From positions 18,869 through 82,868 of the forward strand of contig NZ_JAAKEG010000011.1 of the NCBI RefSeq assembly GCF_011039075.1: a DNA stretch of 64,000 nt, written 5' to 3'. Shown here piece by piece: positions 23,766 through 34,379 of this stretch (positions are counted from its first letter, which is position 1; each line of letters begins with the position of its first letter). The stretch is from Adlercreutzia sp. ZJ304. Lineage in GTDB: Bacteria; Actinomycetota; Coriobacteriia; Coriobacteriales; Eggerthellaceae. Position numbers and translations under genes: made by a program. Below the pieces are notes generated by a model that did no database searches, had not been told where the DNA came from, and saw only the letters and a program-made list of their open reading frames with translations.

Positions 23766-23816
23766 GGCGGGGAAATATCCCCGCCTTAGGGTGGACCAGG
23801 GTCTTTCGACCAGCCC
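23766..23816 (-). other. Two adjacent hairpins in the leader of the DUF3800 gene
   Basis: On the minus strand GGTCGAAAGACC (a GNRA-like tetraloop hairpin within a GGGCTGG...CCACCC context) is followed by GGCGGGGA-TATT-TCCCCGCC and ATTTT, 22 bp before the start codon. The second hairpin looks like an intrinsic terminator. The pair may be the 3' end of a small RNA, an attenuator, or the end of a transcript lost on integration. Confidence 0.5.
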
Positions 23817-23953
23817 AGAATATGTCTAGTTTATACCATGTTTTCAGTGAAACTTCAATCTCTTGGAATCTGTTTGAATCATTGTGTATCTGAATTGACC
23901 GATTGCCGTCGAAATTACTTTTATAAACTAGATACGTATGCAAATGACTTGGA

Positions 23954-34213: not shown

Positions 34214-34235
34214 CACACTAGCTTTTCATATTAAT

Positions 34236-34293
34236 AATCGAAGGAGGGTGAAGTGAGGGCTGCGAAGCTTCTGAACGTAACCCTCCTTCGATT
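34236..34293 (+). other. Hairpin 1 of a tandem pair with conserved loop
   Basis: A 14-bp perfect stem (AATCGAAGGAGGGT, 34236-34249, with ACCCTCCTTCGATT, 34280-34293) encloses a roughly 30-nt loop. Positions 34252-34282 share 29 of 31 bases with 34325-34355 in the next hairpin. It lies 22 bp after ppk1 and is followed by CTATTTT, so it could act as a terminator, but loop conservation suggests more. Confidence 0.75.
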
Positions 34294-34309
34294 CTATTTT
34301 GCATTAGTG

Positions 34310-34368
34310 AAATCGGAAAGACGGAGTGAAGGCTGCGTAGCTTCTGAACGTAACCTCTTCCGATTTTT
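34310..34368 (+). terminator. Hairpin 2 of the tandem pair, terminator-like
   Basis: AAATCGGAA (34310-34318) pairs with TTCCGATTT (34358-34366) and runs into a TTTTT tract. Four more pairs continue inward past single-base bulges. The loop contains the same 31-nt segment as hairpin 1. It lies between the convergent genes ppk1 and glmM (glmM stop at 34380). Confidence 0.75.
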
Positions 34369-34379
34369 ATGCATCAGGA

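What the first reader, a model, noticed from the sequence alone, without database searches (positions are those of the whole stretch)
34236..34368. Two tandem hairpins with different stems but a 31-nt loop segment conserved at 29 of 31 positions
Seen: 34252-34282 and 34325-34355 differ at two bases, while the flanking stems differ yet each pairs with its own partner. A plain duplicated terminator would not keep its loop and change its stem. Inference: a duplicated structured RNA element (small RNA, protein-binding loop, or dispersed repeat family) located after ppk1 and before glmM.
Basis: seen in the sequence. Interest (0 to 1): 0.75.

Follow-up and report, generated by a model that had tools for sequence, protein, structure and literature searches.

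The report
Mobile hairpin repeat with rewritten stems
The two hairpins are two of 42 detected copies of a short DNA element scattered through this bacterium's genome and found even inside protein-coding genes; the copies share nearly the same loop while their stems differ in sequence yet mostly match themselves, and the element likely spreads as a DNA hairpin.

Summary
The 31-nt loop segment is the fixed head of a dispersed palindromic element. A covariance model finds 42 distinct copies in this 2.0-Mb genome. It finds the element in 18 of 138 genomes of the family, Eggerthellaceae, with 1 to 35 matches each. Viral, phage and plasmid searches found none. Stems differ from copy to copy yet mostly stay complementary (covariation score 0.68, 0.24 shuffled). 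Eleven copies lie in open frames inside six ORFs, leuS and murD among them. In sister genomes G001 and G002, ppk1 and glmM overlap by 18 nt; here a 166-nt spacer holds the two hairpins. G.T and A.C stem mismatches are about equally common (31 and 25), which argues against upkeep through a transcript of one strand. I read it as a non-autonomous mobile palindrome, like REPINs or Rickettsia palindromic elements, whose arms are probably kept matched by arm-to-arm template switching. Neither the Y1 transposase domain nor reverse transcriptase tracks its presence, so the mover is unknown. A second, unrelated head with copy-specific arms exists in relatives.

The parts
34236..34249 (+). hairpin 1, 5' arm (AATCGAAGGAGGGT), copy-specific
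34250..34279 (+). hairpin 1, conserved structured head (core)
   Evidence: the 31-nt segments differ at 2 positions
34280..34293 (+). hairpin 1, 3' arm, perfect complement of 34236-34249
34309..34320 (+). hairpin 2, 5' arm (about 12 pairs, outermost G.U)
34323..34352 (+). hairpin 2, conserved structured head (core; alignment columns 20-49)
34355..34367 (+). hairpin 2, 3' arm, one bulged base
34214..34379 (.). 166-nt ppk1/glmM spacer holding both hairpins; in sister genomes G001 and G002 the two genes overlap by 18 nt

Best explanation
The two hairpins are two of 42 detected copies in this genome of a dispersed palindromic element of roughly 65-70 bp, with a fixed ~30-nt head on a copy-specific, mostly complementary stem, which likely spreads as a non-autonomous mobile DNA hairpin and whose arms are probably kept matched by arm-to-arm copying (template switching) during replication. 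Shown: the copies, their patchy presence, the conserved head, compensated stem differences, copies in open frames inside ORFs, and absence at the same place in some relatives. Inferred: that absence in relatives means insertion, that the folded form is single-stranded DNA, that an unknown enzyme acting in trans recognises the head, and that complementarity is restored by template switching and not by selection on an RNA. A side effect that I think likely but did not test: intergenic copies just past stop codons act as 3'-end hairpins or weak terminators.
For: Copies: 42 distinct here, in 18 of 138 family genomes. Stem: 16 of 16 outer pairs have changes on both sides; 90.9% of all cells pair against 68.2% shuffled and at most 49.4% when slid. 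Head: inner pair 24-45 is U-A in 34 and C-G in 10 of 49; G25 A26 stands opposite CUGA in 42 of 49. The element strand folds better than its complement in 42 of 49, with RNA and with DNA parameters. Absence in relatives: ppk1/glmM in G001 and G002; the hypA/hypB spacer of G086 against G006 and G087 (gene names are my reading); the motif is in 2 of 240 fetched MurD and LeuS homologues, both the query's own clusters. DNA-level upkeep: G.T against A.C mismatches 31 and 25 in 12 inner pairs, p 0.50; 48 and 38 in all 16, p 0.33. Six orthologous pairs show 9 one-sided and 4 two-sided changes in 108 stem pairs, 0.67 two-sided expected, P 0.005; two are double transversions inside an ORF. Two copies in one ORF of G001 differ in their 16 stem pairs only by an adjacent AA/TT to GG/CC change. 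A second head with copy-specific arms in g5 genomes. Template switching is described as making and mending such stems (PMC8794818, PMC8604942; abstracts).
Against: No moving enzyme: Y1_Tnp in 10 of 18 carriers and 61 of 120 others, p 0.80; reverse transcriptase in 3 of 18 and 27 of 120, p 0.76. No target-site duplication established. At ppk1/glmM the polarity is open: G024 and G009 have what look by eye like plain terminator hairpins there, so the sisters may have lost a spacer. Four of five empty-site comparisons in G086 were too diverged to place the ends. In this genome orientation is strongly biased (10 of 10 tandem intergenic sites and 6 of 6 ORFs antisense), which a purely selfish element does not predict without a further reason. 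Of five covariation measures one, pairs with a change on both sides, was reached by 10 of 500 shuffles, and shuffles ignore relatedness. Six orthologous pairs are few; the expectation of 0.67 assumes independent arms; one of the four two-sided changes starts from a mismatch. Own ORF copies pair less well (0.75 of 13 inner pairs) than intergenic ones (0.84).
Confidence: 0.62

Rival explanations
1. A functional 3'-end RNA hairpin (terminator or mRNA stabiliser) with a loop bound by a protein; selection on the RNA keeps the stem paired.
For: In this genome 23 of 24 intergenic sites lie between convergent genes or, in tandem, within 68 nt of an upstream stop codon; in 9 of 10 tandem sites the element is nearer the upstream stop codon. 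Outer stems are often A-rich then T-rich, as in bidirectional terminators. The head is more conserved than the arms.
Against: Copies inside ORFs, in both orientations in relatives (19 sense, 14 antisense of 46 placements, heuristic). No significant excess of G.U over A.C (31 to 25, or 48 to 38). A separate terminator-like hairpin, seen by eye, precedes the copy at L017:8242. The terminator scan called neither hairpin (its loop limit of 8 would exclude them). No Rfam family.
Confidence: 0.2
2. Insertion of a bare ~31-nt head into the loop of hairpins that were already there (for example terminators), so that the stem belongs to the site.
For: In one search stems of many copies look unrelated yet complementary; distant relatives have terminator-like hairpins at ppk1/glmM.
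Against: At the hypA/hypB spacer neither arm is in the alleles of G006 or G087. Arms of intergenic copies here share a consensus (AAAaTCGGAAAGGC; mean arm identity 0.44), so the inner stem seems to travel with the head. Copies inside ORFs also have long stems.
Confidence: 0.1
3. A RAYT-mobilised REP/REPIN family.
For: Same style: short palindrome, tandem clusters, downstream of genes, compensated hairpin changes (PMC3116915, passages; PMC3733652, passages).
Against: The Y1_Tnp domain does not track carriers; G062 with 24 matches and G069 with 14 have none (both 84-85% complete). No conserved GTAG or CGTC tag stands out at the ends of the stem.
Confidence: 0.08

Closest known systems
REPINs / REP elements (RAYT-associated)
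   Same: Short palindromes, dispersed and clustered, mostly downstream of genes; REPIN spacers show compensatory changes with the hairpin kept (PMC3116915, passages).
   Different: In REPINs two conserved outer regions flank a less conserved spacer, and REPs carry GTAG or CGTC tags; here the conserved part is the apical head and the stem varies. No link to Y1 transposases.
Rickettsia palindromic elements (RPE)
   Same: Palindromes found in frame inside unrelated genes; a review passage gives about 150 bp, ten families, 44 integrations in metabolic genes of one species (PMC10969869, passages).
   Different: Different lineage, about half the length, one fixed head with copy-specific arms. Whether RPE arms vary the same way was not checked: the primary paper is not held.
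PARCEL coding palindromes
   Same: Coding repeats with dyad symmetry and punctate distribution (PMC2996958, abstract).
   Different: Tandem 25-residue domains, many in ORFs with membrane-targeting sequences; here single or few inserts, several in housekeeping enzymes, and many intergenic copies.
MITEs
   Same: Small, apparently non-autonomous, patchy.
   Different: No parent transposon was found or systematically sought beyond two domains, and no fixed terminal inverted repeats; the inverted arms differ from copy to copy.

Membership tests
REP/REPIN (RAYT-associated) | co-occurs with a RAYT (Y1 tyrosine transposase) | tested here: not met
   Y1_Tnp in 10 of 18 carriers, 61 of 120 non-carriers; none found in G062 with 24 matches. 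Domain-level test; RAYTs were not separated from IS200, and some genomes are incomplete.
REP/REPIN (RAYT-associated) | conserved GTAG or CGTC tag at the end of the stem | tested here: not met
   no such tetranucleotide stands out in the flank profile of 30 intergenic or 17 relative copies
REP/REPIN (RAYT-associated) | palindrome, dispersed and clustered, extragenic | tested here: inconclusive
   31 of 42 copies intergenic, 11 inside ORFs
Rickettsia palindromic elements | in-frame insertion in unrelated protein genes | tested here: met
   11 copies in open frames of 6 ORFs here, further ORFs in relatives; for MurD and LeuS homologues without the motif were seen
Rickettsia palindromic elements | sequence homology to an RPE family | not tested
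   no RPE sequence was fetched
MITE | fixed terminal inverted repeats shared with a transposon | tested here: not met
   arms differ between copies: mean arm identity 0.44, head 0.84 among 33 own copies
MITE | target-site duplication | tested here: inconclusive
   one clean empty site only
Known structured RNA family (Rfam 15) | covariance-model match | tested here: not met
   none at gathering score here; only one hit, E 8, far below its gathering score
Intrinsic terminator | G+C-rich hairpin followed by a U run, with RNA 3' ends | not testable with these tools
   some copies have T runs, many do not; no transcript data

The most novel reading that the evidence does not exclude
Eggerthellaceae genomes carry a general stem-rewriting process: unrelated mobile heads (at least two families) each sit on arms made or re-made complementary at every site, so that the inverted arms, not a shared terminal repeat, are the working part of the mobile unit. 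Each copy would be a natural record of template switching, including inside essential genes.
Probability: 0.3. Interest if true: 0.8.

Novelty: new variant of a known kind. Interest (0 to 1): 0.66.

Why it matters
Covariation of a stem is commonly taken as the best evidence of a functional RNA. Here a strongly covarying stem also sits inside coding genes, in either orientation among relatives, with no significant strand signature in its mismatches, so it is a natural test case for the claim that DNA template switching can make and keep stems. It is also, so far as the listed paper searches show, an undescribed coding palindrome outside Rickettsia, adding peptides to enzymes such as LeuS and MurD and, by my reading of the sequences, HypF, RsmB, DnaX and MetH.

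Tried and rejected
Rejected: local tandem duplication as origin of the pair (mates are not nearest relatives in 5 of 6 tandem pairs tested; the exception is L019). Rejected: known RNA family. Not found: phage, plasmid or viral carriage (0 matches; the viral scans were for exact patterns only). Rejected as general: plain terminator. Rejected, as far as one clean empty site allows: one arm taken from the target at insertion. No association with Y1_Tnp or reverse transcriptase. I first drew the inner helix as 25-27 with 39-41 (model R1) and changed it to 23-24/45-46 and 27-31/36-40 (R2), which RNAalifold had already given on A1, after copies from relatives showed a covarying pair. A GC-skew or replication-strand test of orientation was not done. 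A kink-turn-like fold of the head was considered from memory and not tested. No structure was predicted.

Dropped rows: of 51 rows, 6 are the same places on the reverse strand and 3 are the contig C32 copies of C6 (identical over 12576 of 12576 bases), leaving 42; 40 of these have E <= 0.001. A4 holds 33 own and 16 relative copies, 49 in all; short, weak or gapped copies were left out. Behind, four placements are in short, doubtful ORFs (L137 twice, L109, L120), at least three loci are counted twice (L063/L145, L064/L116, L113/L144), and the 38 loci are only part of the carriers' copies. In one search I compared five of eight fetched G086 loci.

Full report
Observation. The two 31-base segments differ at 2 positions. 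Hairpin 1 is strong (14 bp, z -5.2); hairpin 2 is weak alone (z -1.15, 27 of 200 shuffles as good).

It is a family. AGTGARGGCTGCG occurs exactly 25 times in the 2.0-Mb genome. From 22 copies I built a covariance model. It gives 51 rows at E <= 0.1: 42 distinct copies after removing 6 reverse-strand repeats and 3 rows on a duplicated contig; 40 of them at E <= 0.001. Many stand in pairs or triples. A second model from 49 copies (33 own, 16 from relatives) finds the element in 18 of 138 genomes of the family, in 10 of 48 genera, with 1 to 35 matches. In 396 genomes drawn from the class, 15 have a match, 14 of them in the family; the other is one weak match (G227, 37 bits). Four named records hold exact matches, all Eggerthellaceae metagenome-assembled genomes. 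No match in viral contigs (two exact patterns), phages or plasmids.

Anatomy. Outer stem of roughly 11-21 bp; then a 3x3 loop, GNA opposite GNA in 39 of 49; two pairs (mostly G-C, then U-A or C-G); GA opposite CUGA in 42 of 49; a five-pair helix; a GCGN loop in 46 of 49. All 16 outer pairs have two-sided changes; 90.9% of cells pair, against 68.2% in shuffles and 36.5-49.4% when slid; covariation score 0.682 against 0.243. No shuffle of 500 reached these two, but 10 of 500 reached the count of pairs with two-sided changes. Mean identity between own copies is 0.84 in the head and 0.44 in either arm. The element strand folds better than its complement in 42 of 49 copies with RNA and with DNA parameters, so one strand is the better structured one.

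Where it sits. Eleven of the 42 copies lie in open frames of six ORFs: an activase-type ORF (2), RsmB (1), an 883-residue ORF (3), HypF (2), MurD (2) and LeuS (1), all antisense to the gene, where the frame often reads LRSEA(S/A/T)QPSLR. ORF names are my reading of the sequences; MurD and LeuS are borne out by source names. Among the 120 listed MurD and 120 listed LeuS homologues only the query's own clusters carry the motif. In LeuS the alignment to the solved enzyme 1h3n breaks between query residues 233 and 272 and chain residues 234 and 240, which holds the insert. The other 31 copies are at 24 intergenic sites: 13 convergent, 10 tandem, 1 divergent, by a simple ORF caller. All 10 tandem sites are antisense to their genes and 9 of 10 are nearer the upstream stop codon. 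With the six ORFs this makes 16 of 16 antisense (p 3e-5, taking each site as independent). Relatives do not share this bias: 33 of 46 placements are in ORFs, 19 sense and 14 antisense (see dropped rows).

Presence and absence. In G001 and G002 the 3' ends of ppk1 and glmM overlap by 18 nt; here 166 nt holding both hairpins lie between the stop codons. Two more distant relatives (G024, G009) have terminator-like hairpins there (by eye), so which state is older is open. In G086 a copy between ORFs that I read as hypA and hypB is missing, both arms included, from G006 and G087. Four further G086 sites show no such head in the compared stretches of relatives but are too diverged to place the ends.

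How the stem stays matched. Three results point to DNA and not RNA. Mismatches that pair as G.T on the element strand and those that would pair only on the other strand (A.C) are 31 and 25 in the 12 inner pairs (p 0.50), 48 and 38 in all 16 (p 0.33). Coding copies keep long stems, though own ORF copies pair less well (0.75 of 13 inner pairs) than intergenic ones (0.84) or relatives' copies (0.88). Orthologous copies, six pairs, show 9 one-sided and 4 two-sided changes in 108 stem pairs where 0.67 two-sided are expected if the arms change independently (P 0.005). Three of the four go from one standard pair to another and one starts from a mismatch; two are double transversions at one site inside an ORF (L105/L143). 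Two copies in one ORF of G001 (which I read as nifJ) differ within their 16 stem pairs only by an adjacent AA/TT to GG/CC change. Replication template switching between arms predicts this, and is reported to create and mend stems (PMC8794818, abstract) and to homogenise arms inside genes (PMC8604942, abstract). That it acts here is inferred.

The mover. Neither Y1_Tnp (10 of 18 carriers, 61 of 120 others) nor reverse transcriptase (3 of 18, 27 of 120) tracks the element. No other enzyme was tested. The mover is unknown.

A second case. In three g5 genomes an unrelated head (CTCAGTCGCTCAGACAGTCC ... CTTGGTGAGC) also sits on copy-specific arms that look complementary by eye in eight copies; no statistics were run on it. 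If general, stem rewriting belongs to the host's replication and not to one element.

Place among known things. It works like REPINs and like Rickettsia palindromic elements. It fails the RAYT and tag tests for the first; homology to the second was not tested. I saw no account of it in the listings of five paper searches, in a library without most subscription papers.

Noticed in passing
L132, L153, L157, L160, L162, L166, L167, L168 (G086, G087, G006): A second dispersed hairpin family: head CTCAGTCGCTCAGACAGTCC...CTTGGTGAGC flanked by copy-specific arms that look complementary by eye.
   Followed up: partly
P0125, P0126 (LeuS homologues): A different insert (SLEQSSLRCGTR, with a variant second copy in P0125) in the same LeuS linker: perhaps another coding repeat family.
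   Followed up: no
window 23770-23817 (-): Rfam match DUF3800-XI RNA, 70 bits against a gathering score of 37.8.
   Followed up: no
L011 and L022 (contigs C6 and C32): Identical 12576-base stretch on two contigs; probably an assembly duplicate, or a recent duplication.
   Followed up: partly
L010, L106, L139, L108, L119: Copies in what looks like the same linker of an activase-type ORF in five genomes of four genera, with different stems in most: repeated insertion into one permissive linker, or old insertions with rewritten stems.
   Followed up: partly
L017:3036-3090: Degenerate repeats resembling parts of the element between two full copies.
   Followed up: no
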